Shown: positions 48,801 to 62,584 of the stretch, piece after piece
How the letters are laid out: every line of letters starts with the position of its first letter
Position numbering within the stretch: the stretch's first letter is position 1
Origin: Chitinophaga niabensis
GTDB taxonomy: Bacteria > Bacteroidota > Bacteroidia > Chitinophagales > Chitinophagaceae
Reading direction: 5' to 3'
NCBI GenBank assembly: GCA_017849435.1
Contig: JAFIGY010000009.1
Span: forward strand, 558,001 to 622,000
DNA length: 64,000 nucleotides
Position numbers and translations under genes: made by a program
The notes under the pieces: model-generated
Databases searched by the model: none
Seen by the model: the letters and a program-made list of their open reading frames with translations, nothing else
Told to the model about the DNA's origin: nothing

Positions 48801-51800
48801 CTATCTTTTTGAAAGGGCTGGAGCTTTCGGGGCTTCAGCCTTTTTTATTTCCGGGGCCTCCCCGTCCTCAAAATACCCGATCTTACGCATATTGTATACA
48901 TCCACTGAGCAGACCTTGAACTCCTCTGTCACTTTGCCTTCCATGATGTAGAAGCCGCCTTTCTGGAACGGGTACTGCCGCAGGCTGTCCGGGAAATGCA
49001 CGGTATCCATGAACTCGCCGTTCTTGTCGAGGAAACACCCGAAACACATCGGTTCTCTTTTAACGGTGTACACATGTTTGAGACAAACGAAATAGCCGAT
49101 GGTACGGATCGTTTTACCGAGGTGATCTTTGAAATCGGCTGCAGGCACATATGGGGCCAGATCATGCCGGAGCACTTCGAAAGGGGAATGGAGCGGGAAG
49201 CCGAGCAACTCGATCTCGTCAAACGCATCTTCATGCTGGTGATAGGTGAGGTGCGGGAGAGTCCAGTTCCGGGAGGGCTCGCGGAACAGCCGAGGAATGA
49301 GCTCTTCGGGAGATACGCCACGTAGCAGCGCCGGGCCCTTCCAAAGCAGTTCTTTTTTTGTATGGCCGGTGAAGTTAAACGCCCCGATGCGGATGAGTAT
49401 CTCCAGTTGTTCCGGCGCCGGGCCTGCACGGTCTATAAAATCCTCCAATCCTCCAAAGGGCCCGTTTACACGGCGTTCTTCCAGTGTCCGCTTTATCCAG
49501 GCTTCTTCCAGTCTTTCTACATGAATGAATCCGGTGAATACATCGTTCCCTTTAATATTCGTATAGTAGTCACTGTTATTCATGCAGGGCGGGAAAAGTT
49601 GTACCCCGGTTTTTTGTAATTCCCGGAAATACAATTCACGGTTATAAAATCCGCCGAAGTTATTGATCACCGCCACCATGAACTCCGCCGGGAAATAGGT
49701 TTTGAGATAAAGGCTCTGATAGCTTTCCACTGCAAAGCTGGCGGAGTGGGCCTTTGAGAAGGAGAAATTGGCGAAACTGGCAATTTGTCGCCATACCTCC
49801 CTGCTAACGGCTTCCGGCCGCCCGAGCCGGGCACAGTTGCTGAAAAAAAGTTCCTGTATCTCTTCAAACTTTCCCTGTCCACGATATTTACCGGCCATTG
49901 CCCGGCGCAGGATATCCGCATCCGCCAGATCCATATCGGCGTAATGATGCGCTACCTTGATCACATCTTCCTGGTAGACCATCACCCCGAATGTTTCGCT
50001 GAGCAGGGATTCCATGATGGGATGAAGGTATTTTACTTCTTCCTGGTGATTAAAATTATACACGTATTGCCGCATCATGCCTGCCTGCGCCACTCCGGGC
50101 CGGATGATAGAGCTGGCAGCTACCAGCGTGATATAGTCCTCGCATTTCAGTTTCTTCAACAGCTGGCGCATCGCAGGGGATTCGATATAAAAGCAGCCGA
50201 TCGTGTTGACATTTTTAAGTGCGCTGCGCACTTTTTCGTCTTCCATGAATTTTTTCACATCGTGGATATCGATCGTCTCGCCTTTGTTCTCACGGATGAG
50301 GTCCATGGAGTCCCGGATATGTCCGAGGCCGCGCTGGCTGAGGATGTCAAACTTGTGCAGCGAGATGGATTCCGCCATGTGCATGTCCAACTGGGTGGTA
50401 GAGAACCCTTTGGGCGGCATGTGCGTAGCGCAATACTGGTGGATGGGTGCTTCGCTGATCAGGATCCCGCCGGCGTGGATGCTGAGATGATTGGGGAAAG
50501 GCGTGCCCTCTTTGGAGAGGATACTGCCGAAGTGGAGGATCTGCTGATGGATGCTGTCATTTCCCAGCCTGATATCATACGGATGTTCCAGTATCTTGTC
50601 GATCTCCTGTTTGGGCAGGCCATATACCTTGCCCAGCTCACGCACCACGGCATTGGTCTGAAATGTGGTGACGGTGCCCAGCAGCGCCGTATGTTTTTCA
50701 GTGTATTTATCAAAGATGTATTTCGTGATCTCATCCCTGTTCTGCCAGGAAAAATCGATATCGAAATCCGGCGGTGACTGGCGATAGGGGTTGAGGAAAC
50801 GCTCGAAGTAGAGGTCCAGTGCTATCGGGTCCACATTTGTGATCTGCAGGCAATAGGCCACAATGGAATTGGCGCCGCTTCCCCGCCCGACGTGAAAGAA
50901 TCCCTGTTGCATGCTGTGACGGATAATATCCCAGGTGATCAGGAAATAAGCCATGAAATCCTGATCCTCTATGATCTGCAATTCCTTTTCGATCCGTTCC
51001 AGCGCTTCCCGGTTATTGTTGCCGTAGCGGTATTCCATTCCTTTCAGCGTTTCCTGCCGCAGCAGCGCCCGGTCTTCTGCAGCGCTGCCGGTAAACCATC
51101 GTTTGTTCCGGGATTTCTGCGGCCCCATTTTTATTTCGCAGGCTTCCATCACCTGCAGCGTATTTTTCACGATATGGGGATGTTCCCTGAAACATTCCAG
51201 CAGCGCGTGTGGAGGAATAAAACATTCGTCCACGCCCGCCACCTCATGTTCCGGCAGCTGGCTGATCAGTACGTTATTGTCCACTGCCCGCAATACCCTG
51301 TGCAGGGCCTGGTTTTCCGCGTCCTGGAAACTCAGGGGCTGTAATATCACCAGCTTATGCGCCCAATGCTTCGTGTCCAGCCGGAACAGTTTGTTGATCT
51401 CCCTCGGCCGCACGCCCATCAGCTCATGCTGCGCGAGCGCTGCCAACGGACGGCTCCCCCAGGCATAGATCACAAATGTCCGCGGAAGGTACGGGGCCGT
51501 TTCCGGGAAAGGTGCATCGCTGTGCAGATGCCGGGATAAGAAATGATGGATATGCAGCAGACCTTCAAGATCCTGCGCCAGCAGTACGTAACAGAAGCGG
51601 GAACCATTACGGCATTCCAGTCCCGCTATGGGCTTAATATCCGCCTCCCCGCAGGCTTTCACGAACTCCCATATATCCGTAGTGGCATTGATGTTGGTCA
51701 ATGCGAGGGAGGTGATCCCGTGATATGCGGCCGTCTTTACCAGCTCCCTCGTGGGAATGGTGCCGTAGCGCAGACTGAACCAGGTTTTACAATTCAAATA

Positions 51801-51803
51801 CAT
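48801..51803 (-). CDS. DNA polymerase III alpha-like, probable error-prone DnaE
   Basis: 1000 residues, shorter than replicative DnaE (about 1160-1250). The catalytic palm is intact: VGRGSGANSIVAYCLQITNVDPIALDLYFERFLNP and SPPDFDIDFSWQNRDEITKYI, whose Asp residues bind metal. The N-terminal PHP domain is degenerate: it begins MYLNCKTWFSLRYGTIPT where PHP domains have an HxH metal motif. A C-terminal OB-like region (about 890-960) is followed by a short K/A/P tail. Co-transcription with dinB, 11 bp upstream, points to a translesion (DnaE2/ImuC-like) role rather than the main replicase. No imuA or imuB is present. Two CTAA-N5-TTAG repeats upstream of dinB probably control it. Confidence 0.9.
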   Translation of the reverse strand: MYLNCKTWFSLRYGTIPTRELVKTAAYHGITSLALTNINATTDIWEFVKACGEADIKPIAGLECRNGSRFCYVLLAQDLEGLLHIHHFLSRHLHSDAPFPETAPYLPRTFVIYAWGSRPLAALAQHELMGVRPREINKLFRLDTKHWAHKLVILQPLSFQDAENQALHRVLRAVDNNVLISQLPEHEVAGVDECFIPPHALLECFREHPHIVKNTLQVMEACEIKMGPQKSRNKRWFTGSAAEDRALLRQETLKGMEYRYGNNNREALERIEKELQIIEDQDFMAYFLITWDIIRHSMQQGFFHVGRGSGANSIVAYCLQITNVDPIALDLYFERFLNPYRQSPPDFDIDFSWQNRDEITKYIFDKYTEKHTALLGTVTTFQTNAVVRELGKVYGLPKQEIDKILEHPYDIRLGNDSIHQQILHFGSILSKEGTPFPNHLSIHAGGILISEAPIHQYCATHMPPKGFSTTQLDMHMAESISLHKFDILSQRGLGHIRDSMDLIRENKGETIDIHDVKKFMEDEKVRSALKNVNTIGCFYIESPAMRQLLKKLKCEDYITLVAASSIIRPGVAQAGMMRQYVYNFNHQEEVKYLHPIMESLLSETFGVMVYQEDVIKVAHHYADMDLADADILRRAMAGKYRGQGKFEEIQELFFSNCARLGRPEAVSREVWRQIASFANFSFSKAHSASFAVESYQSLYLKTYFPAEFMVAVINNFGGFYNRELYFRELQKTGVQLFPPCMNNSDYYTNIKGNDVFTGFIHVERLEEAWIKRTLEERRVNGPFGGLEDFIDRAGPAPEQLEILIRIGAFNFTGHTKKELLWKGPALLRGVSPEELIPRLFREPSRNWTLPHLTYHQHEDAFDEIELLGFPLHSPFEVLRHDLAPYVPAADFKDHLGKTIRTIGYFVCLKHVYTVKREPMCFGCFLDKNGEFMDTVHFPDSLRQYPFQKGGFYIMEGKVTEEFKVCSVDVYNMRKIGYFEDGEAPEIKKAEAPKAPALSKR
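48816..48849 (+). terminator. Terminator of aspartokinase, within the dnaE 3' end
   Basis: GGCTGGAGC (48816-48824) pairs with GCTTCAGCC (48832-48840) with one G-T pair, followed by seven T and ATTT. The same bases encode the C-terminal lysine/alanine-rich tail of the dnaE product on the other strand. Confidence 0.75.
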
Positions 51804-51814
51804 CGTTACAAAAA

Positions 51815-53077
51815 TTATCTCCAGCCCGGATACCTCCGCCGAAGGATCATCGTTTTCCCGTCCGCCTCCTTCTCCACCGGTTTCTTCTCTTTCTGGAACG
51901 GGTTCAGTCGCTCTTCATACCGGTTGCCGCTGCTGCTGCCCCGCATGAGGTATTGCCAGCCGAACTGGCTTTTAATGCTGTCGATCGCCTGGTAGAGCGA
52001 GATCATTTCCTGCGTGTCATCGAAGAGGCTGATCTGGTAATTGCCGGATACGAGGTGACTGAAGCGCACGCCTATCAGTCGTATGAGCAGCCGGCGATCA
52101 TACAGTTTGTTAAAAAGCTCTTTCACTTTCTCCAGCAGCACATGATCGCTGGACGTATAGGAAATGCTCATCTGTTTGGTGACGGTTTCAAAATCGGAGT
52201 AGCGGATCTTCACGGTCACGCATCCTGTCAAACGGTTCTGCTGTCGCAGCTCAAATCCGATCCGCTCGGTCATCCGTACCAGCTCGCTGTTGATAAATTG
52301 CAGGTCAATCGTATCGGCGCCGAAGGTGTTCTCGGTGGAAATGGACTTTTGTTCATGATAAGGGATCACCGGGGTTTCATCGATCCCGTTTGCTTTGTTC
52401 CATAATGCGATGCCGTTTTTACCCATCCAGGCTTCCAGCAAACCTACCGGCACTTCGCTCAGCGTGCGCACGGTTTCCACGCCGCGCCGCCGCAGCTGTG
52501 CAGCGGTTTCTTTGCCTACCATCGGGATCTTTTCAATGGGCATGGGTGCGAGGAAAACTTTCTCCTGCCCGAAGGGCACGGACAGCTGTCCATTTGGCTT
52601 GGCCTCATTGGTGGCCACTTTGGAGATCATTTTGTTGGAGGCCATCCCCAGGGAAACAGGCAGATGCGTTTCGCGGATGATTTTCTGCCGCAATTCGCTG
52701 GTCCATTTCATTGATCCGAAATATTTGTCCATTCCAGTCAGGTCCAGATAAAACTCATCGATGGATGATTTTTCGTATAGAGGGGCAGATTCGGAGATGA
52801 TACCGGTAACGATCCGAGAAAATTTGCTGTATTCTTCCATATCGCCACTGCGGATGATCGCATGCGGACAAAGCCGCAATGCCATTTTCATCGGCATGGC
52901 GGAATGAATACCGAAAACGCGGGCTTCATAACTGCAGGCAGCTACCACGCCACGGTCGCTATACCCGCCCACGAGCAGCGGTTTGCCTTTCAGCCGGCTG
53001 TCCTTCAAACATTCCACAGATACAAAAAAACAATCCATATCGAAGTGCGCGATCGTTCGCTGTCCATTCAGCAGCAT
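51815..53077 (-). CDS. dinB: Y-family DNA polymerase IV
   Basis: Translesion polymerase, 420 residues. Catalytic motifs: IAHFDMDCFFVSVE and SSIDEFYLDLTG carry the metal-binding Asp and Glu; VSLGMASNKMISKVATNEAKPNG is the palm signature; IPMVGKETAAQLRRRGVETVRTL is the thumb helix-hairpin-helix. The little-finger domain follows, and YQISLFDDTQ near residue 355 contains a classical beta-clamp motif (QISLF), so this enzyme, unlike ImuB, looks catalytically active and clamp-binding. It leads the dinB-dnaE operon. Its start is 23 bp from the first of two CTAA-N5-TTAG repeats. Confidence 0.95.
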   Translation of the reverse strand: MLLNGQRTIAHFDMDCFFVSVECLKDSRLKGKPLLVGGYSDRGVVAACSYEARVFGIHSAMPMKMALRLCPHAIIRSGDMEEYSKFSRIVTGIISESAPLYEKSSIDEFYLDLTGMDKYFGSMKWTSELRQKIIRETHLPVSLGMASNKMISKVATNEAKPNGQLSVPFGQEKVFLAPMPIEKIPMVGKETAAQLRRRGVETVRTLSEVPVGLLEAWMGKNGIALWNKANGIDETPVIPYHEQKSISTENTFGADTIDLQFINSELVRMTERIGFELRQQNRLTGCVTVKIRYSDFETVTKQMSISYTSSDHVLLEKVKELFNKLYDRRLLIRLIGVRFSHLVSGNYQISLFDDTQEMISLYQAIDSIKSQFGWQYLMRGSSSGNRYEERLNPFQKEKKPVEKEADGKTMILRRRYPGWR

Positions 53078-53100: not shown

Positions 53101-53117
53101 TACTAAATATTTTAGTA
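53101..53117. promoter_or_regulatory. SOS-like operator, dinB copy 1
   Basis: TACTAAATATTTTAGTA: perfect inverted repeat TACTAA-N5-TTAGTA. Core CTAA-N5-TTAG at 53103-53115. TAATTTTA on the minus strand (53102-53095) is a near -7 box for dinB directly beside it. Confidence 0.65.
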
Positions 53118-53136
53118 TTACTAATGTTGTTAGTAA
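53118..53136. promoter_or_regulatory. SOS-like operator, dinB copy 2
   Basis: TTACTAATGTTGTTAGTAA: perfect 7-bp half-sites with a 5-bp spacer. Core CTAA-N5-TTAG at 53121-53133; its centre is 18 bp from the centre of copy 1. It lies between dinB and the divergent SdpI gene and could affect both. Confidence 0.65.
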
Positions 53137-53200
53137 AAATTTTTAAACTTATCTGGCCCGATAACTGTAGTAATATATAGGTACACTAATCCTTTTGACG

Positions 53201-53926
53201 ATGAAAACGGAGCCGTTTTATCTTGCCGATGACGCAATAAAATCCGGAGAGAAGAAGCAGACGGATTATGTGAAGGAAGTGCTCTTACTCGCACTCCTGA
53301 TTGCGCCCATGGCTTATCTGGGTATTATCTGGAATCGTTTGCCCGAGATTATTCCTACGAATTTCCATTTGAACGGGGTGGCGGACCGGGTGGGGGACAA
53401 GCGGGAGTTCCTGTTGCTGATGATCTTCCTTTTCTTCACCAATGCATTGCTGTATTTCCTGTTCCGGTATATTCCCAAGCCGGTGGAGGAGAATGAGCCG
53501 CCGAAGGAGAATGCGGAGCATATACGGGCTTATTACCGTATCCGTTTCAGGATACATATCTATCTCGCTGTGTTTACGACGATTATTATCTATCTCGTGA
53601 GTGCGGGGAAGGAGATCTTCCTGGAAAAATGGGTATTCATCGGGGTGGGAATGCTGATCTCCGGCATTGGTCTTTTCCTGTGGCATCTGAAGCCCAACAA
53701 CTTTGTGGGGGTGCGTACGCCCTGGACGTTGCAGGATGACAGGATATGGAAGGAAACACATGATATGGCCGGAAAATTGTGGCTGTTTGCCGGTATCGGG
53801 ATCATTATTGCAGGCATGTTCCTGACCGTGCTCAGCGGGGTTTTCCTGTTCATGTTTGCTGCCGGGTTGCTGGCGGCGCTGCCCTACGTTTATTCATACA
53901 GATTATTCTATAAAACACGGGGTTAA
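53201..53926 (+). CDS. SdpI-family membrane protein with DUF1648 region
   Basis: 241 residues, start ATG 53201 (MKTEPFYLADDAIKSG); a TTG at 53195 is less likely. Six membrane helices are visible. The first part is DUF1648-like (LAYLGIIWNRLPEIIPTNFHLNGVADR has the P-x-H-x-N-x-x-G core), and the second carries the SdpI signature NNFVGVRTPWTLQDDRIWKETHDMAGKLW. SdpI of Bacillus gives immunity to a secreted killing peptide and acts as a signal receptor; in Bacteroidota the role is unproven. It is divergent from dinB across a region with two SOS-like operators, so it might be damage-responsive. Confidence 0.85.
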   Translation: MKTEPFYLADDAIKSGEKKQTDYVKEVLLLALLIAPMAYLGIIWNRLPEIIPTNFHLNGVADRVGDKREFLLLMIFLFFTNALLYFLFRYIPKPVEENEPPKENAEHIRAYYRIRFRIHIYLAVFTTIIIYLVSAGKEIFLEKWVFIGVGMLISGIGLFLWHLKPNNFVGVRTPWTLQDDRIWKETHDMAGKLWLFAGIGIIIAGMFLTVLSGVFLFMFAAGLLAALPYVYSYRLFYKTRG

Positions 53927-53953
53927 ATAAAAGGCAGGCTATCCGATAGAAAG

Positions 53954-53983
53954 AAAAAGGACAGGTTGGACCTGTCCTTTTTT
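53954..53983. terminator. Bidirectional terminator
   Basis: AAAAAGGACAGGT (53954-53966) pairs perfectly over 13 bp with ACCTGTCCTTTTT (53970-53982), 3-nt loop. A and T tracts make it work for the SdpI gene and for the convergent 4-TM gene. Confidence 0.9.
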
Positions 53984-54002
53984 ATATCCGGAGTAAAACA
54001 GA

Positions 54003-54455
54003 TCAGAACCATTTTCTGCCCAGTACTTCCCGGAAAGGCCAGGGAATGAGGAGCAGGATCAGCAGCAGGGCCAGGCCGAAGAAGATCAGCGCCAGCTTGT
54101 GTTTTTTTGCGTCTTCCGTTGTTTTTTTGATGCGGGCGCGACCGATATGCACCAGCGCGATCGCGAGGATGGCCATGGTAGTATGTTCAATGGTGAAGAA
54201 CCGCAACGGCGTAACTTTCATGGCTGCGCCCATATCGCCGAGGGCTGTTTTAACGAGCGGACTGATAAAGAACAGGATCAGGCCCAGCAGGAACTGGATA
54301 TCCAGGAAGATCATGAAGAACAATCCGGCTTTTGTGTCGGCGGAAGAATAGGGGGATTTGCTGCTAACGCCCTGCCATGCACGAATAAAAGCCCAGATGC
54401 CGGTCAGCAGGATCAGCCACCTTACCAATGAGTGAAGAAGCAACAATGTATTCAT
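54003..54455 (-). CDS. Four-helix membrane protein, cytochrome b-like
   Basis: 150 residues starting at ATG 54455 (MNTLLLLHSLVRWLILLTGIW); the longer frame to 54737 is antisense to the S24 regulator and not coding. Four membrane helices: about 5-22, 45-63, 88-105 and 118-137. His8, His86 and His99 (IEHTTMAILAIALVHIG) lie in or next to helices, so haem binding is imaginable; similar small proteins are often labelled cytochrome B without proof. The end LIPWPFREVLGRKW is characteristic of this small family. It is divergent from the S24 regulator; the regulator's operators are 67 bp or more from its start. Confidence 0.6.
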   Translation of the reverse strand: MNTLLLLHSLVRWLILLTGIWAFIRAWQGVSSKSPYSSADTKAGLFFMIFLDIQFLLGLILFFISPLVKTALGDMGAAMKVTPLRFFTIEHTTMAILAIALVHIGRARIKKTTEDAKKHKLALIFFGLALLLILLLIPWPFREVLGRKWF

Positions 54456-54499
54456 AGTATAATTGAGTTTTGTCCGGGGCAAAGATATGTGAAGATATA

Positions 54500-54532
54500 T
54501 TTGGTAAATACAAAAAATATTTGCTAATTTTG
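54500..54532 (+). promoter_or_regulatory. Promoter of the XRE-S24 regulator
   Basis: TTTG (54500-54503), 21-bp spacer, TAATTTTG (54525-54532), both exact matches to the Bacteroidota consensus. Start of transcription would be near 54539. The -7 box lies inside operator copy 3, so the regulator should repress itself. Confidence 0.65.
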
Positions 54533-54538
54533 TTAGCA
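54522..54538. promoter_or_regulatory. SOS-like operator, regulator copy 3
   Basis: TGCTAATTTTGTTAGCA: perfect 6-bp half-sites with N5. Core CTAA-N5-TTAG at 54524-54536, the same core and spacing as the two sites before dinB, and it contains the promoter's -7 element. Confidence 0.7.
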
Positions 54539-54546
54539 TTGTTGTA

Positions 54547-54559
54547 CTAAATAATTTAG
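54547..54559. promoter_or_regulatory. SOS-like operator, regulator copy 4
   Basis: CTAAATAATTTAG: palindrome with core CTAA-N5-TTAG, ending two bases before the ATG at 54562. Centre 23 bp from that of copy 3. Confidence 0.6.
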
Positions 54560-54561
54560 GG

Positions 54562-55317
54562 ATGTCAACTGTTTGCCGTAACCTGAAGTATCTGCGTAAG
54601 CAAAAGGGCTGGACGCAGCAGGAATTTGCCGACCGTTTGAATATTAAGCGTTCTCTACTGGGAGCGTATGAAGAAGAACGGGCGGAGCCGCGCACGGAAG
54701 TACTGGAACAGGTCAGTGATATGTTTCGTGTATCCATTGACGATCTGTTGCGCCGTGATCTGAGTTCACAGAAGGAAAGTTTTCTCGAACGGCGGCGTCA
54801 GCAGAAGCTGGGAAGCAGCTCCCGTCAGAATGTGGTGTTCGTTCCGGTGAAAGCGGCGGCCGGTTATCTGGCGGGATTCAATGATGAGGAGTTCATCGAA
54901 GAGCTGAACGCCTTCACCCTGCCGATGCTGGGAGCCGGTAGTTACAGGGCTTTCGAGATCGCCGGAGACTCTATGCTGCCAACACCTTCGGGTTCCGTGG
55001 TGGTTTGCCACAAGGTGGATGGCTGGGACGATATCCGTAATAATGAAGCCTACATTGTAGTGACCAACCGGGAAGGTATCGTGTACAAACGCGTGCTGAA
55101 AAGCAACCGTTCCAAAAGCAAGGTTACCCTGGTATCCGATAATCCGCAATATGAACCTTATCCGGTGAGTATGGATGATGTGCTGGAGATCTGGCAGGCC
55201 GATGCAGTGATCCAGAAAATGGGCCAGCAACATCGCCTGAGCGTCAATCACCTGGCGGGTATGGTGAATCAGCTGCAGGAGCAGGTGAGCATGCTGAAAA
55301 AACAAATGAAGAACTGA
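54562..55317 (+). CDS. XRE-S24 self-cleaving repressor, LexA-like
   Basis: 251 residues. XRE helix-turn-helix at about 6-62 (RNLKYLRKQKGWTQQEFADRLNIKRSLLGAYEEERAEPRTEVL), a linker, then a LexA/UmuD-type S24 peptidase. Catalytic Ser137 is in AFEIAGDSMLP and Lys176 in GIVYKRVLK; the expected Ala-Gly cleavage bond is at 100-101 in VKAAAGYLAG. The last 30 residues form a coiled coil (LAGMVNQLQEQVSMLKKQM). It should bind DNA as a dimer and cut itself when RecA filaments form, releasing its targets. Four matching inverted repeats, two in its own promoter and two before dinB-dnaE, make it the likely SOS regulator for this locus. Related prophage repressors share the layout, but no phage genes are nearby. 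Confidence 0.9.
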   Translation: MSTVCRNLKYLRKQKGWTQQEFADRLNIKRSLLGAYEEERAEPRTEVLEQVSDMFRVSIDDLLRRDLSSQKESFLERRRQQKLGSSSRQNVVFVPVKAAAGYLAGFNDEEFIEELNAFTLPMLGAGSYRAFEIAGDSMLPTPSGSVVVCHKVDGWDDIRNNEAYIVVTNREGIVYKRVLKSNRSKSKVTLVSDNPQYEPYPVSMDDVLEIWQADAVIQKMGQQHRLSVNHLAGMVNQLQEQVSMLKKQMKN

Positions 55318-55724: not shown

Positions 55725-56381
55725 TTAGACTTTCAACACCCTCGTTCCGGCAATCACAAACACCACCGACGAAGGCTCGGGGTCCAGGGAGAATAATCCT
55801 GTGAACCGGCTGAATGCCGGCAATACCGCCGCCTCTTCCCCGAAATAAAAACAAGGCAGCTGCAGGCGCTGCCGCCCTAACCCCACCATCCGCACCCCGG
55901 GATGGATATGCCCGGAGAATATGTAGTGATCCGGGGGCAGGGAGGCCTTGTCTGCCGCATCATGCACAAAGTGGATGTTACGCAGATCAAGCGATGGGTA
56001 CAGGTTGATCTGCAGGTCAGCATAGTGCGCAGGGCGCAGGATATCGTGGTTACCGATGATGAGCTCGAAGCGGATGTGAGGGAACTGCTGCCGCCACAGC
56101 TTGAAATACTGCACGTCATTGTTGGCGGAACTATGGAACATGTCTCCTACAACAATGATCTGCTGCGGATGATACCGGGTGATCAGCTGCTGCAATACAA
56201 AAAGGTCTTCCTGCACAATATTTGCCGGAACTGCAATGCCGGATTTCCGGAAGTGTGCGGACTTCCCCACATGGAGGTCTGCTACAATCAAAGCCTGCTC
56301 TTCCTCCCAATAGATCGCTCTTCCGGCGGACAATCGCCAGTGTTGTTCCCTGAAATGAAATGATATATCCTCCAAAGTCAA
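55725..56381 (-). CDS. pdeM: Ligase-associated DNA repair nuclease PdeM
   Basis: 218-residue calcineurin-type metallophosphoesterase. Metal motifs in order: ALIVADLHVGKSAHFRK (D-x-H), IIVVGDMFHSSANN (GD), ELIIGNHD (GNHD) and YIFSGHIHPGVRM (GHxHP). This matches the ligase-associated DNA damage response endonuclease family. It is the last gene of the minus-strand repair block: the Lhr-like helicase gene precedes it by 27 bp and the ligase and exonuclease genes are further upstream. Likely end-processing of broken DNA in the cytoplasm. Confidence 0.92.
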   Translation of the reverse strand: MTLEDISFHFREQHWRLSAGRAIYWEEEQALIVADLHVGKSAHFRKSGIAVPANIVQEDLFVLQQLITRYHPQQIIVVGDMFHSSANNDVQYFKLWRQQFPHIRFELIIGNHDILRPAHYADLQINLYPSLDLRNIHFVHDAADKASLPPDHYIFSGHIHPGVRMVGLGRQRLQLPCFYFGEEAAVLPAFSRFTGLFSLDPEPSSVVFVIAGTRVLKV

Positions 56382-56408
56382 TTGCGAATTTTAAATTATA
56401 CAAACTCC

Positions 56409-58850
56409 TCACCGCTCCAGGATCATCTTTTTAATCCGGTCTTCCAGCTTCTCACTGGTGAGCTGCTCACGCAAACTGTCCACTTTGATCGGGAAGCAGA
56501 ATGGCGTCAGCCGCTGCGGGAAAGTGATCACGATCCGGTTGTTGTAAATGCGCTCCATCGTTTCACGAAGGCGCGCTTCTTCCATCTGGTAAAAGAATGC
56601 TTCATTGAACGCCTGCCGCAGCAGGATGTTTTGCGGATCGTAATCGTGAAATACATTGAACAGTAAGGATGCCGACGACTGCAAATGCTTGTTGGCCTTG
56701 CTCTTCCCGGGGTATCCCTGGAAAATAAGTCCCGCTATCACCGCAATATCCCTGAATTTCCGCCGGGCCATTTCGGTGGCATTCACGCTGCTTTGCAGAT
56801 CAATGGTAAGGTTTTCCGTGGAAAAGAGTTCCTGTACATTGGTATCATCCACCGGAATGGGTTGGTCGGAGAGCAGTTCGAAGCCATAATCATTCATGGC
56901 GATGGAGAAAGTAATGGGATGCCGCTGACTGATACGCCAGGCCAGTAATGCGGCCATCACTTCGTGAACCAGCCTTCCCTCGAACGGATATACGAAAAGA
57001 TGAAACCCGTCGTCTGTCTGGATCTGTTCGATGAGCAGTTCATTTTCCTGCGGGATGTGAGACAGCAATTGCTGCAGCTCAAATAAAGGTTGCAGTACGA
57101 TGATCTCCTCTTCCTGTGCGGTGCCGGCCATCGCTTCGTGAAATTTGCGCCGCAGCATTTTCCCGAGATTGGCGGAAAGCGGCATCCTGCCTCCGGCCCA
57201 GCTTGGTACGATGCTCTTCTTCGATTTGGATCTGCGCACTATCACGGTCATATCTTTGATCATCACAAATTCCAGCTGTTGCCCGCCCAAACTGAAGACG
57301 TCGCCGGGAGAAAGGCGGGAAATGAAATATTCTTCGATTACACCCACATATCCGCCGCTCATGAATCGTACTTTGAGCATGGCTTCACTCACGATGGTAC
57401 CGATGTGTAAACGGTGCCGCATGGCCTGCTGCCGGCTCACGCAATGATAATGGTCGCCCACGAGATGCAGCTTCCGGAATTCATCATAGCTATGCAGCGC
57501 CTCTCCGCCGGTGGTAAGGAAAGCCAGCATCCACTGCCATTCTTCGGGAGTAAGGTCTTTATAACAGAAAGTCTTTGTCACTTCCTCCCATATCTCTTCC
57601 GCGTGGAACCCGTCTGATACCCCCAATGTCATAAGGTATTGCAGCAACACATCATACGCCAGCACCACGGGCATGCGGCTTTCTATCAAACCTTCTGCCA
57701 TGGCGTCTTTCAACGCTGCTGCTTCCACCAGCTCAAGGGAATGGGTGGGAAGGAACCAGATGTTGCTCACGGCATCCGGGCGGTGACCGCTACGTCCCGC
57801 CCGTTGCAGGAACCGCGCAACGCCTTTGGGACTGCCCACCTGGATGACGGTATCAACGGGCCGGAAGTCCACACCGAGGTCAAGACTGGAGGTACATACA
57901 ACGAGCTTCAACACGCCGGTATGCAGCGCTTCTTCCACCCAGATGCGTAATTCTGCATCTATGGAACCGTGATGCAGGGCGATAGCCCCGGCCAGTTCCG
58001 GCTCCGCTTTCAGTATCTGCTGGTACCATATTTCGGATTGCCCGCGGGTATTGGTGAAGAGGAGTGTAGTGTTACTGGCTTGTACAACGGGCAGTACTTT
58101 GTGCAGCAACCGCAGGCCCATATGTCCCGCCCAAGGGTATTTTTCGATCTCATCCGGCAACACGCAATGCACCGCTATCTTTTTCTGCACATCGGCTCTT
58201 ACGATCACGGATTCCCGGGAAGTTGTGCCCGTCAATACTTCCAACGCTTCTTCAAGATTGCCGATGGTAGCGGAGATACCCCAGGTCTGCAAATGCGGAT
58301 GCATACCGCGCAGGCGGCTCAGGGCCAGTTCTACCATCACTCCGCGTTTACTGCCGATGAGTTCATGCCATTCATCTATGACAACGGTATGGAGGCCTGC
58401 AAAACGTAAAGGATATTCTTTTTGGGCGAACAGGATGTGGATGGATTCGGGTGTGATGATGAGGATCTCCGGCATCTGCCGCTTTTGTTGCTCACGAACG
58501 CTGAGGCTGGTATCTCCGCTGCGGATCCCTACTTTCCAGGGCACCTGCAATTCCCGTAACGCTTCCTCCATAGCGCGGCCAATATCTTTAGCCAGTGCGC
58601 GCAGCGGCGTGACCCATAACAATTTCAACCCGTTGCCGGATCGCTTCCGGTAATCCGGCTGTTCGTTCATCCACCGTATCACCACACCAAGGAAAAGCGA
58701 AAATGTTTTCCCGAAACCGGTAGGGGCATTCACCAGGCCGGAACGGCCTTTGAGATAATGCTCCCAGGCCTCTTCCTGGAATGCGAACGGCTGCAATCCT
58801 TTGTCCGCCAGCCATTGCGCTACTGCTTGCCAGCCTCTTGTCTCTTTCAT
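56409..58850 (-). CDS. Ligase-associated DEXH helicase, Lhr-like
   Basis: 813 residues, superfamily 2 helicase of the Lhr-core type. Q-motif region GLQPFAFQEEAWEHYLKGRSG; Walker A NAPTGFGKTFSLFLG; LLWVTPLRALAKDI (motif Ia); DEXH box VVIDEWHELIGSKRG; motif III WGISATIGNLEEA; domain 2 with LLFTNTRGQSEIWYQ and the ARGININE-finger motif FLQRAGRSGHRP. The winged-helix and Lhr-specific C-terminal domains follow. It unwinds DNA or RNA-DNA hybrids and belongs to the four-gene ligase-associated repair module, here 27 bp ahead of pdeM. Confidence 0.94.
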   Translation of the reverse strand: MKETRGWQAVAQWLADKGLQPFAFQEEAWEHYLKGRSGLVNAPTGFGKTFSLFLGVVIRWMNEQPDYRKRSGNGLKLLWVTPLRALAKDIGRAMEEALRELQVPWKVGIRSGDTSLSVREQQKRQMPEILIITPESIHILFAQKEYPLRFAGLHTVVIDEWHELIGSKRGVMVELALSRLRGMHPHLQTWGISATIGNLEEALEVLTGTTSRESVIVRADVQKKIAVHCVLPDEIEKYPWAGHMGLRLLHKVLPVVQASNTTLLFTNTRGQSEIWYQQILKAEPELAGAIALHHGSIDAELRIWVEEALHTGVLKLVVCTSSLDLGVDFRPVDTVIQVGSPKGVARFLQRAGRSGHRPDAVSNIWFLPTHSLELVEAAALKDAMAEGLIESRMPVVLAYDVLLQYLMTLGVSDGFHAEEIWEEVTKTFCYKDLTPEEWQWMLAFLTTGGEALHSYDEFRKLHLVGDHYHCVSRQQAMRHRLHIGTIVSEAMLKVRFMSGGYVGVIEEYFISRLSPGDVFSLGGQQLEFVMIKDMTVIVRRSKSKKSIVPSWAGGRMPLSANLGKMLRRKFHEAMAGTAQEEEIIVLQPLFELQQLLSHIPQENELLIEQIQTDDGFHLFVYPFEGRLVHEVMAALLAWRISQRHPITFSIAMNDYGFELLSDQPIPVDDTNVQELFSTENLTIDLQSSVNATEMARRKFRDIAVIAGLIFQGYPGKSKANKHLQSSASLLFNVFHDYDPQNILLRQAFNEAFFYQMEEARLRETMERIYNNRIVITFPQRLTPFCFPIKVDSLREQLTSEKLEDRIKKMILER

Positions 58851-58925
58851 GCTGCATGAAATTAGGAAAATTTACCGCATGCACGAAAGATGTGCTGAAA
58901 GCCTGTACAGGAAGATGTAAGAAGA

Positions 58926-59744
58926 TTATTTCGCGAGGATCAGGCGTACGCCAACGATCAGCAAAGCTCCCGCCAGTGCGAGGATGATGCCTTTGGGTTT
59001 CACCCTGCTGGATAAACCCGCACCCAGCTGCGCACCCATTACTACGCCGATGCCGATGGACAAAGCGATCTGCCATCCTTCCCAGAAACTGCCCTGGATC
59101 ATATGCACAATCGTACCGGCGAGCGCCATCACGGCGAGGATAAAGTGCGAGGTGGCGGTAGCGATGTGGATCGGGAAGTTCAGCAGGCTGATCAGCGCCG
59201 GTACATGAATGATCCCGCCGCCGATACCGAGCAGACTGCTCACAAAGCCGACAAGGAAACTGATCAGGATGCCCGTGCGAATGTTGAATGAAAAATGATG
59301 TTCTTCACCGTTGCTCTCCGTTACGCAACGGTCCACACTGCGGCCGTTCAGTTTGCGGGAAGCATAAGCGCCCTGCTGCGGTTTAAGCATGAGGAAAACA
59401 GATACAACGATCAACAGTACGCCGAGGATAATATTGAAGATATGCCGGGAGATCACAGACGTCATCAATGCACCAATTACAGCGCCGGGAAGTGTGGCGA
59501 GCGCAAAGATCCACGCGGACTTAAAATCGATCCGTTTTTTGCGGGCATAAGCCACGGAACCGGAAGATGCATTCAGAAATACAACAGCCAGTGAAATACT
59601 GGTGAGCACATCCGGAGGCATATTCGGATACATCAGCAGCAGGAGCGGCATCAATATAAAGCCTCCGCCCGCTCCGATGAGGGTCCCAAACGTCCCGATA
59701 AAAAATCCCAGTCCAACTAATAACAATGCAGACAGCAGGTCCAT
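58926..59744 (-). CDS. TauE/SafE-family permease
   Basis: 272 residues with eight membrane helices and the two family repeats: FGTLIGAGGGFILMPLLLLMYPNMPPDVLTSISLAVVFLNASSGSVAYARKKRIDFKSA and VSSLLGIGGGIIHVPALISLLNFPIHIATATSHFILAVMALAG. The family exports or imports sulfite, sulfoacetate, taurine-derived or other small organic anions; substrate unknown here. It stands between the helicase and ligase genes of the repair module, same strand, with 75 bp to the helicase and 232 bp to the ligase, and appears unrelated to them. Confidence 0.92.
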   Translation of the reverse strand: MDLLSALLLVGLGFFIGTFGTLIGAGGGFILMPLLLLMYPNMPPDVLTSISLAVVFLNASSGSVAYARKKRIDFKSAWIFALATLPGAVIGALMTSVISRHIFNIILGVLLIVVSVFLMLKPQQGAYASRKLNGRSVDRCVTESNGEEHHFSFNIRTGILISFLVGFVSSLLGIGGGIIHVPALISLLNFPIHIATATSHFILAVMALAGTIVHMIQGSFWEGWQIALSIGIGVVMGAQLGAGLSSRVKPKGIILALAGALLIVGVRLILAK

Positions 59745-59976
59745 GATCCTTGCGTATGATTTTCTCGTGAAATAGTCTGTTTATACACTTCCTCAATGCC
59801 TTCCGGTGGGAAGGGGAAAAGAATTAGGACGATTTTTTTTAATGTTGGTCGCTAATGATTGGTTTCTTTTCCTTAATCGTTCTTCCGGTATCAAGGATGT
59901 TTTGGTGGCCGGAGAGGCGTTTTTCCTGCCCGGTCAGGGTAAAGGTAGGGGGTTTCTTCAACACTAAATTTATAGA
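59745..59976. other. 232-bp gap between permease and ligase genes
   Basis: No gene seen. CCTTCC-GGTG-GGAAGG (near 59801-59816) is a short perfect hairpin close to the permease start. I found no clear terminator for the ligase transcript and no CTAA-N5-TTAG site, so the ligase pair may read through into the permease gene. Confidence 0.4.
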
Positions 59977-61578
59977 CTAAGAGGGGGTTGTTCCGAGCAG
60001 TTTTTTCAGGTCATCCAGGGTGTTGATCTCGCTCACCGGCTTGTCTCTCCGCCAACGGTGAATCCTCGGGAAACGCAGTGCGATGCCGGATTTATGTCTC
60101 CCGGAAGCCGCAATTCCTTCAAAAGCGATCTCGAAAACGAGCTCGGGTTTTACCGTACGCACCGGCCCGAATTTTTCCAGCGCATTCTTTTTCACCCAGC
60201 TGTCCACCTCCGCGATCTCCTTGTCTGTAAGCCCGGAATAGGCCTTGGCAAAGGGTACCAGCTGGTCACCGTTCCATACGGCAAAAGTGTAATCTGTATA
60301 AAGATTGGAGCGGCGTCCATGACCTTTTTGCGCGTAGATCATCACAGCGTCTACAGTATAGGGGTCAATCTTCCATTTCCACCAGTCGCCCCGCCGCCGG
60401 CCCACCTGATAAGCAGAGCTGCATCTTTTCAAGATGATGCCTTCACTGCCGTTGTTCCGGGATTGTTCACGGAGGATGGCGAGCTGGTCCCATGCAGGGA
60501 ATGGGATGATGGGCGAGAGTTTCAGGGCGGGTTGATGGATTTGTGCCACGAGGGATTCCAGCAAGCGGCGGCGTTCCTGCAGAGGCCATCCGCGAATGTC
60601 CTGCCCCTGCCACTCCAGCAGATCGTAACTGTGAAAGATTACGGGTGCTTCCTGTAATTGTTTTTTGGTGATTGTCTTTCTGCCGATGCGGGTCTGGAGC
60701 GCCTGGAACGGCAGGGGACGGTCCTGCTGCTGATCGTAGGCCAGTATTTCCCCGTCGATGGCGGTACCGTCCGGCAGGGCATGCAGCAGGGCGGTGAGTT
60801 CGGGGAACTTCTCCGTGATGAGCTCTTCTCCCCGCGACCAGATGAACAGCTGGCCGTTCCGTCGGATCATTTGTCCGCGTATGCCATCCCATTTCCATTC
60901 CGCCTGCCACTCTTCCGGCGCTCCCAGTCCGGCCGGCGGCGCTTCCAGCGCATAGGCGAGGAAGAAAGGATAAGGTTTTGAATCGTCTGTATTACTGTTC
61001 TCCTCATTCAGCAAGGCCTCCATTGTAGTCTGCCGCGGATCCCAGTTTCCGCTGATCATATGCGAAACCGTGGCGGGCGCTATCTGATAAGTTTTTGCGA
61101 GTGCGTTAACGATCATGCTCTGCGATACCCCGATGCGAAATCCTCCGGTGATCAGTTTGTTGAACACAAAACGTTCTGTGTGTTCCATCTGGTCCCAGGC
61201 ACTGCGAATGAAGGTTTCCTTTTCCGCCTCCGTAGCTTTTTCAAGCCGGAGCAGGGATTCCAGCCAGTGATGCAAAGGTTGCGGCTGCGCTTTCGTTTCC
61301 GGCGGCGGCAGTAACAACGCAATGGTTTCGGCGAGATCACCCACGGTATGATAACATTCTTCGAACAACCATTCGGGTAGTTCCGCCATGGCGATGCTCC
61401 ATTGTTTCAGTTGCGTGGAGTTCACCACCCGTTTGGGCCGGCGGCCGGTGAAGAGCGCGAGTACCCAGGGCCTGTCCTGCTCATTTGCCGTGGCGAAATA
61501 ACGGCCGAGTGCATCCAGCTTTTCGTTGGTTTTGGTGCTTTGCGCCAGGGTGAATATGAGCCGGGAGAATTGTTGCAT
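59977..61578 (-). CDS. ATP-dependent DNA ligase, ligase-associated repair module
   Basis: 533 residues. N-terminal DNA-binding domain (about 1-200), adenylation domain with the nucleotide-accepting Lys in EWKWDGIRGQMIRR (K-x-DG motif), DGEILAYDQQQDRPLPFQALQTRIGR (motif III region), SEGIILKRCSSAYQVGRRRGDWWKWKID (motifs IV-V), and a C-terminal OB domain ending KSGIALRFPRIHRWRRDKP. This is the archaeal/bacterial LigB-like form found with Lhr-like helicase, exonuclease and PdeM. It begins one base after the exonuclease stop, so the two are co-translated. NAD-dependent ligase, needed for replication, is expected elsewhere. Confidence 0.94.
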   Translation of the reverse strand: MQQFSRLIFTLAQSTKTNEKLDALGRYFATANEQDRPWVLALFTGRRPKRVVNSTQLKQWSIAMAELPEWLFEECYHTVGDLAETIALLLPPPETKAQPQPLHHWLESLLRLEKATEAEKETFIRSAWDQMEHTERFVFNKLITGGFRIGVSQSMIVNALAKTYQIAPATVSHMISGNWDPRQTTMEALLNEENSNTDDSKPYPFFLAYALEAPPAGLGAPEEWQAEWKWDGIRGQMIRRNGQLFIWSRGEELITEKFPELTALLHALPDGTAIDGEILAYDQQQDRPLPFQALQTRIGRKTITKKQLQEAPVIFHSYDLLEWQGQDIRGWPLQERRRLLESLVAQIHQPALKLSPIIPFPAWDQLAILREQSRNNGSEGIILKRCSSAYQVGRRRGDWWKWKIDPYTVDAVMIYAQKGHGRRSNLYTDYTFAVWNGDQLVPFAKAYSGLTDKEIAEVDSWVKKNALEKFGPVRTVKPELVFEIAFEGIAASGRHKSGIALRFPRIHRWRRDKPVSEINTLDDLKKLLGTTPS

Positions 61579-61579
61579 G

Positions 61580-62584
61580 TTACGCTGTTGTTTCTTCTTC
61601 TTCGTTACCGAAAGCAGTTTTCACCTCCTCCGCCTGCAGGCCGTTCTCCTGCAGATAGCGGGCCAGCACACTGCTGAAGCCATGTGTTACAAATACCTTT
61701 TCCGCGCCGGTATACCGGATAGTTTGCAGCAATCCCCGCCAGTCCGCATGATCCGATATCGCGAACCCTGCGTCTGCGTTATACCGGCGGGCATTCCCGC
61801 GTACCTGCATCCAGCCGCTGCATACACCGAGTGAATAGGGGGAGAAGCGCCGCATCCAGGCGGAATCCGCTGTGGAAGGTGGGGCAATAATGAGGCTTCC
61901 CCTGAAATGTTCCTTTGGCGTATCCGGTGTAATCAGTTCTACCGGCGGCAGCGGCCAGTTTTGCCGGAGGAGCACTTCGTGGGCGTTGTAGATGGCGCCG
62001 TGGACAAGGAACCGGGGCACAGCGTTGCGGAGGTTGTAGAGCAGCCTTTGGGCTTTACCCAGACTGTACGCTACTAATATGCTGTTCTTGCCGGATTGCT
62101 CATTTTCGTGTATCCATAACCGTATGTCATCCATGATCGCTGCCTGTGGTTTCCAGTGGTAGATGGGGAGGCCGAAAGTAGATTCGGTGATGAAGACCTG
62201 GCATTTCAGCGGCTCAAAAGCTCCGGAGATCCCGTCGTTCTCTGTTTTGTAATCCCCGCTCACCACCCATGTTTGACCCTGGTGCATAATCTTCACCTGT
62301 GCCGAGCCGATCATGTGGCCGGCGGGATGGAAGGAAACGGTGACGCCGTTGAAATGAAGGGTTTCGCCGTAAGGCAATCCCTGTGCACTAATGTCTTTCC
62401 CCAGCCGGAGCTGTAGCAGCGGCACACTGTCTTTCGTGCAGAGATAGTGCTGGTTGCCCCAGCGGGCGTGATCGGAATGGGCATGGGTGATCACTGCGCG
62501 GGGTACCGGTTTCCAGGGGTCGATATAAAAATCTCCGGCCGGGCAGTAAATGCCTCTTTCTGTGAAGGTGAGCACTGATTCCAT
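61580..62584 (-). CDS. Ligase-associated DNA repair exonuclease (MBL/beta-CASP)
   Basis: 334 residues, metallo-beta-lactamase fold with beta-CASP features. Metal motif AVITHAHSDHARWG (HxHxDH); HPAGHMIGSAQV; VVSGDYKTE; ITESTFGLPIY; and the later FAISDHADWRGLLQTI and VFVTHG. Matches the ligase-associated exonuclease family. It is the first gene of the minus-strand repair block, starting 38 bp from the divergent sigma factor gene, so the two share a control region. It likely trims DNA ends before ligation. Confidence 0.93.
   Translation of the reverse strand: MESVLTFTERGIYCPAGDFYIDPWKPVPRAVITHAHSDHARWGNQHYLCTKDSVPLLQLRLGKDISAQGLPYGETLHFNGVTVSFHPAGHMIGSAQVKIMHQGQTWVVSGDYKTENDGISGAFEPLKCQVFITESTFGLPIYHWKPQAAIMDDIRLWIHENEQSGKNSILVAYSLGKAQRLLYNLRNAVPRFLVHGAIYNAHEVLLRQNWPLPPVELITPDTPKEHFRGSLIIAPPSTADSAWMRRFSPYSLGVCSGWMQVRGNARRYNADAGFAISDHADWRGLLQTIRYTGAEKVFVTHGFSSVLARYLQENGLQAEEVKTAFGNEEEETTA

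What the first reader, a model, noticed from the sequence alone, without database searches (positions are those of the whole stretch)
53101..54559. Four CTAA-N5-TTAG inverted repeats define a compact SOS-like mutasome regulon
Two perfect sites lie upstream of dinB-dnaE (53101-53117, 53118-53136) and two upstream of the XRE-S24 regulator (54522-54538, 54547-54559). All share CTAA-N5-TTAG; by eye I found no other copy in the window. The regulator has an intact Ser137/Lys176 pair and an Ala-Gly cleavage bond, so it looks like a LexA substitute controlling translesion polymerases and itself. The motif differs from the E. coli and Bacillus LexA boxes. Sites and active-site residues are seen; regulation is inferred.
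Basis: partly seen in the sequence, partly recalled or inferred. Interest (0 to 1): 0.82.

Follow-up and report, generated by a model that had tools for sequence, protein, structure and literature searches.

The report
Known Bacteroidota SOS switch in Chitinophaga
The four repeated DNA signals are binding sites of a DNA-damage repressor already described in this bacterial phylum; the new points are a fixed paired layout of the sites and a probable extra gene under the same control.

Summary
In detail: four perfect CTAA-N5-TTAG sites lie in the window, two before dinB-dnaE and two before an XRE-S24 repressor, and nowhere else in it. The main interpretation is right but already published. PMC8565304 (2021) defined this motif, this HTH_3+S24 "non-canonical LexA" family and its SOS network in the Bacteroidetes, Chitinophagaceae included, with EMSA and RT-qPCR in other species. 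"Compact mutasome regulon" is too narrow: in this genome perfect sites also precede recA, an splB-like gene, radC, a parE-like gene and a 2H phosphoesterase. Two points go beyond that paper's main text. (1) The repressor's own promoter carries an operator pair: 90 of 91 spacings within 80 bp of the start are 20 or 22-24 bp (157 distinct promoters), and single-site promoters keep a near-perfect partner at 22-24 bp (22 of 35, against 1 of 280 control offset groups). (2) The 2H phosphoesterase carries the site in 27 of 30 family loci examined. Against wide generality, 11 of 19 regulator loci from other families show no such site. Regulation in this organism is inferred.

The parts
53103..53115 (.). 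operator 1 of dinB-dnaE (CTAA-N5-TTAG)
   Evidence: two sites 18-19 bp apart before dinB in 9 of 9 of the loci L213-L222 that have dinB beside the regulator
53121..53133 (.). operator 2 of dinB-dnaE, 18 bp from operator 1
51815..53077 (-). dinB, Y-family DNA polymerase IV; HFDMD and SSIDE motifs present by eye
   Evidence: sequence; IMS PF00817 E 3.4e-47; NCBIfam PRK02406 above its cut-off
48801..51803 (-). dnaE-type DNA polymerase III alpha paralogue (1000 aa), downstream of dinB on the same strand
   Evidence: a second dnaE-like open frame of 1232 aa, 30-40% identical in two segments, is on contig C1
54524..54536 (.). distal operator of the regulator; contains a TAnnTTTG -7-like element
54547..54559 (.). 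proximal operator of the regulator, 23 bp from the distal one, ending 2 bp before the ATG
54562..55317 (+). non-canonical LexA: HTH_3 + linker + S24 peptidase (Ala100-Gly101, Ser137, Lys176) + C-terminal helix
   Evidence: only match in the genome at E <= 0.001
53195..53926 (+). SdpI/DUF1648 membrane protein between dinB and the regulator; a neighbour, probably not a target

Best explanation
This is a Chitinophaga-type copy of the published Bacteroidetes SOS system. A CI-like HTH_3/S24 repressor (non-canonical LexA) binds CTAA-N5-TTAG operators at its own promoter and at dinB-dnaE, recA, an splB-like gene, radC, a parE-like gene and a 2H phosphoesterase. On DNA damage the RecA filament triggers self-cleavage at Ala100-Gly101 by the Ser137/Lys176 dyad, and the promoters are released. 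At its own promoter two dimers sit 23 bp apart over a -7-like element and the start of the message, probably binding cooperatively as lambda CI does. Shown here: sites, their conservation and spacing, protein domains and catalytic residues. Shown by others in other species: binding and mitomycin induction. Inferred: binding, cleavage, cooperativity and induction in this organism.
For: Four perfect sites in two promoters. Ten of the genome's 24 core sites fall at seven SOS-type promoters; 7 of the 8 sites that also match A/T flanks are among them. 86 of 90 family regulator promoters examined carry a perfect site within 300 bp. Among 300-bp upstream regions of 249 ORFs similar to the query genes (134 of them regulators, 13 the SdpI neighbour), 174 carry CTAA-N5-TTAG, against 1-8 for each of 11 rearranged palindromes. 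Domain set and invariant S24 residues; lambda-type repressors, then LexA, are the top fold matches (TM-scores by query length 0.34-0.43, so domains only). Same motif, family and taxon in PMC8565304. In L219 (C. costaii) no dinB was found in the 3 kb flank; the SdpI gene is kept, no site is left before it, and the regulator pair remains.
Against: Fourteen of 24 core sites in the genome have no SOS gene that I could recognise, and the core is not enriched genome-wide. Only 12 of the 30 best dinB loci in the family carry a perfect site within 300 bp, 9 of 27 without the own genus. Of 19 regulator loci from other families, 11 have neither a perfect site within 300 bp nor a 7-of-8 site within about 100 bp, so motif or orthology changes with distance. 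Across the phylum sample only 53 of 296 genomes have a regulator match at E <= 1e-30. No experiment exists for this organism.
Confidence: 0.92

Rival explanations
1. The regulator is a prophage-type or private repressor that controls only itself and the neighbouring dinB-dnaE; the recA, radC and other sites are chance.
For: The XRE-S24 layout is shared with phage repressors. A dinB hit in the flank occurs in 9 of the 10 loci L213-L222 and in none of the other 70 (flanks up to 3 kb, several cut by contig ends).
Against: Sites at recA, radC, splB-like and parE-like promoters match the published regulon; the regulator and its operators are kept across the family with other neighbours. Phage genes around the locus were not systematically searched.
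Confidence: 0.05
2. The paired sites serve the divergent neighbours (SdpI-like gene; small membrane protein or surE-like gene) rather than dinB and the regulator.
For: Both pairs lie in divergent intergenic regions.
Against: In L219 the SdpI gene remains, dinB was not found and the pair there is gone (one case). The gene divergent from the regulator differs between lineages (membrane protein, surE-like, others, named by eye) while the operators stay (listing).
Confidence: 0.04
3. Two operators simply raise occupancy; the 22-24 bp spacing reflects promoter geometry, not contact between repressor dimers.
For: Positions relative to the start codon are also conserved (distal typically -36 to -44, proximal -14 to -20); spacing differs by promoter (18-19 bp at dinB of Chitinophaga; 20 bp at the regulator in L213-L222).
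Against: In 7 of 7 fetched loci of another family (f3) a perfect site has a 7-of-8 partner exactly 23 bp away although the proximal site varies from -27 to -44, which favours a protein-set distance.
Confidence: 0.4

Closest known systems
Non-canonical LexA of the Bacteroidetes, CTAA-N5-TTAG group (PMC8565304; Pontibacter actiniarum WP_025606010.1)
   Same: Identical motif; HTH_3 + S24 with Ala-Gly and Ser-Lys; autoregulation; targets recA, dinB, splB, topoisomerase IV, radC; extra C-terminal helix; Chitinophagaceae listed as having large regulons
   Different: Here dinB-dnaE lies near the regulator; the operator pair spacing and the 2H phosphoesterase were not found in the main text. The supplements were not read.
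Elizabethkingia anophelis SOS regulator beside an error-prone polymerase (PMC8565304, Fig. 8 legend and text)
   Same: Regulator and error-prone polymerase genes close together, both mitomycin-induced there
   Different: That regulator binds TTAC-N5-GTAA; here the standard CTAA-N5-TTAG
Phage lambda CI at OR
   Same: CI-like HTH with S24 domain (lambda-type chains are the top three fold matches); paired operators about 23 bp apart (lambda spacing is recalled, not sourced)
   Different: A chromosomal gene at the head of an SOS regulon; 13-bp operator core with fixed spacer
Deinococcus RDR regulon with cinA-ligT-recA under DdrO (PMC5552922)
   Same: A LigT-type 2H phosphoesterase under a damage-responsive repressor (passages)
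   Different: DdrO is cleaved by the separate protease IrrE (abstract start); absence of an S24 domain and the other motif are recalled

Membership tests
Bacteroidetes non-canonical LexA (CTAA-N5-TTAG group) | HTH_3 plus S24 peptidase domain | tested here: met
   PF01381 E 1.1e-13, PF00717 E 3.2e-10
Bacteroidetes non-canonical LexA (CTAA-N5-TTAG group) | Ala-Gly scissile bond and Ser-Lys dyad | tested here: met
   Ala100-Gly101, Ser137, Lys176 invariant in 13 of 13
Bacteroidetes non-canonical LexA (CTAA-N5-TTAG group) | Motif in its own promoter | tested here: met
   Two perfect sites; 86 of 90 family promoters
Bacteroidetes non-canonical LexA (CTAA-N5-TTAG group) | Motif at core SOS genes | tested here: met
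   recA, dinB, splB-like, radC, parE-like
Bacteroidetes non-canonical LexA (CTAA-N5-TTAG group) | Clades with the characterised P. actiniarum protein in a tree | not tested
   No Pontibacter sequence was obtained: one search kept the best 80 of 564 relatives, and no record title among them names Pontibacter. No tree was built.
Bacteroidetes non-canonical LexA (CTAA-N5-TTAG group) | Binding and damage induction | not testable with these tools
   Needs EMSA and RT-qPCR
ImuA-ImuB-DnaE2 mutasome | imuA and catalytically dead ImuB with DnaE2 | tested here: not met
   dinB shows HFDMD and SSIDE by eye, and no ORF lies between dinB and dnaE. imuA was not searched for elsewhere in the genome.
Canonical LexA | Winged-helix LexA DNA-binding domain | tested here: not met
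   Pfam gives HTH_3-type models and no LexA DNA-binding model at E <= 0.001; the model's N-terminal domain is all-helical

The most novel reading that the evidence does not exclude
The Bacteroidota SOS repressor keeps a phage-type cooperative switch: a conserved operator pair about 23 bp apart, in Chitinophaga with a -7-like element built into the distal operator. Its regulon also holds a 2H (LigT-like) phosphoesterase, often paired with the splB-like repair enzyme: an RNA- or nucleotide-repair output of SOS that arose separately from the Deinococcus ligT-recA case.
Probability: 0.45. Interest if true: 0.55.

Novelty: new member of a known kind. Interest (0 to 1): 0.33.

Why it matters
It shows that a reader without tools recovered a real, published SOS system from raw sequence, and it places this genome in it. 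The operator pair suggests the host repressor may work through CI-like cooperativity, which would give the response a sharp threshold and fits the phage origin proposed in PMC8565304. The 2H phosphoesterase is a concrete, testable addition to the regulon and recalls the LigT protein in the Deinococcus radiation response.

Tried and rejected
Genome-wide count of the core motif as evidence: rejected, because 24 places against 56 for the reversed control is no enrichment. Of 60 places with one mismatch to the flanked pattern (68 less 8 perfect, listing truncated), 12 were fetched and read by eye; none lies before a repair gene that I recognised, and no family search was made on them. A UmuD query in the own genome found nothing; one query only, so weak evidence of absence. 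Control rate from other ORFs: 80 of 375 ORFs not similar to the query genes have a perfect site within 300 bp, against 0-5 for the rearranged palindromes. The 60 of them printed are largely divergent neighbours of the same operators or come from loci fetched because they hold a site, so this is not a clean background; it is also a result that does not separate target from neighbour. In the same call splB-like ORFs had a site within 300 bp in only 1 of 16 and umuC in 7 of 25, as expected for second genes of operons but not proof of it. TAnnTTTG near -53 in the family is a minority signal. Lambda operator spacing could not be sourced and is recalled.

Rows dropped: regulator promoters were taken for the 30 loci plus 60 more matches from its list; lower-ranking matches and at least two near contig starts (G029, G008; seen later as L187 and L191) were left out. 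The 90 and the 80 loci overlap (170 loci, 157 distinct upstreams). The 30 2H loci are those returned for the best matches; 82 of 147 genomes had a match and the rest were not examined. Six of the 30 had no tblastn hit to the own protein and were recovered with queries taken from other loci. Papers: PMC8565304, abstract, sections 12-17 and searched passages; PMC7366714, PMC5552922 and PMC3025348, passages only; others, search listings only.

Full report
Observation. The four perfect CTAA-N5-TTAG sites exist, with cores at 53103-53115, 53121-53133, 54524-54536 and 54547-54559, and there is no fifth in the window. Shuffled sequence gives 0.50 on average and 1 of 100 shuffles reaches four. The first pair lies between dinB (51815-53077, minus) and an SdpI-like gene (53195-53926, plus); the second lies directly before the XRE-S24 gene (54562-55317, plus), the proximal site ending two bases before the ATG.

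The protein. It has HTH_3 (E 1.1e-13) and Peptidase_S24 (E 3.2e-10) domains. Ser137, Lys176 and Ala100-Gly101 are invariant among 13 aligned homologues from this family and other families of the class. The AlphaFold2 model (mean pLDDT 74, pTM 0.47, so domains only) shows a helical N-terminal domain, a low-confidence stretch at 70-88, a beta-rich C-terminal domain and a long C-terminal helix at 228-250. Lambda-type repressors are the top three fold matches and LexA chains follow. The genome holds one match at E <= 0.001.

What is already known. PMC8565304 (abstract, Results sections 12-16 and Discussion section 17 read; supplements not read) describes this motif by the same formula, the HTH_3+S24 family as non-canonical LexA, autoregulation, an SOS network with umuDC, recA, recN, dinB, ruvB, splB and topoisomerase IV, EMSA and RT-qPCR in Pontibacter actiniarum, a regulator beside an error-prone polymerase in Elizabethkingia anophelis, and large regulons in the Chitinophagaceae. 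The finding is therefore a new instance of a published system. A search for Chitinophaga with SOS response and LexA returned only that paper.

The regulon in this genome. The core occurs 24 times in 5.0 Mb, fewer than the reversed control pattern (56), so number alone says nothing. Place does: ten of the 24 lie at seven SOS-type promoters, namely dinB-dnaE (2), the regulator (2), an splB-like radical SAM gene (2), recA, radC, a parE/gyrB-like gene and a 2'-5' RNA ligase-type 2H phosphoesterase. The parE-like site was flagged as inside an ORF because the listed ORF began at an upstream TTG; it lies before the likely ATG (translation). For the other 14 sites I recognised no SOS gene by eye. Of eight sites that also have A/T flanks, seven are at these genes and one is near a lipoprotein-like gene. 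The regulon is thus not a compact mutasome pair. DinB keeps its catalytic motifs by eye and no imuA-like ORF is next to it, so it is not the ImuA-ImuB-DnaE2 cassette.

Conservation. A regulator match at E <= 0.001 occurs in 138 of 147 family genomes sampled (weaker matches include distant paralogues). Of 90 regulator promoters examined, 86 have a perfect site within 300 bp, 52 of them two and 34 one. In the 80 loci, which overlap with the 90, the figures are 48 with two, 28 with one and 4 with none. The genus is most likely Chitinophaga: L213-L222, all titled Chitinophaga, match at 79-84% identity; two MAGs titled C. pinensis (L242, L270) match at only 59 and 64% and are counted with the other 70. 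In nine of L213-L222 dinB lies beside the regulator, and all nine have two perfect sites before dinB, 18-19 bp apart. The tenth (L219, C. costaii) has no dinB hit in the 3 kb flank, keeps the SdpI-like gene, has no site before it and keeps the regulator pair, which points to dinB as the target. Family-wide the dinB sites are weaker: 12 of the 30 best dinB loci have one within 300 bp, 9 of 27 without the own genus. Outside the family the picture is mixed: of 19 regulator loci, 8 have a perfect site within 300 bp and 11 have neither that nor a 7-of-8 site near the start; in a phylum sample 53 of 296 genomes have a match at E <= 1e-30.

Beyond the main text of the paper, first point. The regulator's own promoter has a conserved pair geometry. 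Over 157 distinct 80-bp upstream regions (merged), 91 have two or more perfect sites, 59 one and 7 none; spacings are 20 (10), 22 (15), 23 (53), 24 (12) and 29 (1) bp. The 20-bp spacing is that of L213-L222; the window and L036 have 23. In the 35 promoters of the 90 with one close perfect site, a partner with at least 7 of 8 core letters sits 22-24 bp away in 22, against 1 of 280 control offset groups. All seven fetched loci of another family of the class (L194-L197, L199-L201) show a perfect site with a 7-of-8 partner exactly 23 bp away although their distance to the start codon varies. This favours two dimers held at a set distance, as at lambda OR (about 23-24 bp, recalled), but pairs at dinB are 18-19 bp apart, so one geometry does not serve every promoter. 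In Chitinophaga the distal operator contains TAnnTTTG, the -7 consensus of the Bacteroides primary sigma factor (one passage, PMC7366714), in 13 of 13 loci (L016, L036, L037, L213-L222; not de-duplicated, L037 and L213 may be one species), against 2 of 105 distal sites elsewhere and 0 of 142 proximal sites. The paper's main text has no occurrence of 'cooperativ' and mentions multiple instances only in general.

Second point. The 2H phosphoesterase is a probable regulon member not named in the paper's main text: 'COG1514', 'phosphoesterase', 'phosphodiesterase' and 'ligase' each occur 0 times. Among the 30 family loci returned for the best matches, 27 have a perfect site within 450 bp before the 2H gene or a small gene preceding it; 20 loci also hold an splB-like gene and 17 a UmuD-like gene; ten have the site with no UmuD in view in the fetched stretch. 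Where UmuD is divergent the site may serve UmuD alone, so those ten, the own genome among them with a tpiA-like gene upstream, carry the argument. Three of 30 (L158, L168, L169) have no site. The own protein and the seven others scanned match PF13563, including two from siteless loci. A LigT-type protein is in the Deinococcus damage regulon as cinA-ligT-recA (passages, PMC5552922; also mentioned in PMC3025348). Searches for 2H phosphoesterase with SOS response (1 paper listed), RNA ligase with LexA, regulon and spore photoproduct lyase (0) and LigT with LexA and SOS (7 listed) showed no title reporting this for Bacteroidetes; only two of those eight papers were opened, for passages.

Verdict. 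A well-supported member of a known regulatory kind. The finding is correct, its main interpretation is published, and its regulon claim is too narrow. The pair geometry and the 2H phosphoesterase are modest extensions that can be tested.

Noticed in passing
window 55725-62584, minus strand: Ligase-associated DNA damage response cluster next to the regulator: PdeM endonuclease (TIGR04123), DEXH helicase (TIGR04121) and ATP-dependent DNA ligase (TIGR04120), then an exonuclease-like ORF at 61580-62584 named by eye; no perfect operator there.
   Followed up: partly
loci L155-L184: Recurrent module in the family: umuD (17 of 30 loci, often with umuC) divergent from a 2H phosphoesterase and an splB-like gene (20 of 30) with the operator between; five loci have two 2H genes and four have a small ORF of about 115 aa before the 2H gene (two of these scanned, no Pfam match).
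   Followed up: partly
window 53195-53926 (+): SdpI/DUF1648 membrane protein conserved between dinB's place and the regulator in 10 of 10 of L213-L222; no role found.
   Followed up: partly
window 54003-54455 (-): Small membrane protein divergent from the regulator, no Pfam or NCBIfam match; in many other loci a surE-like gene, named by eye, stands there (listing).
   Followed up: no
L039, L042: Two regulators of one genus (g30) have their operator pair about 400-500 bp upstream, spaced 31-33 bp, roughly one helical turn more than usual.
   Followed up: no
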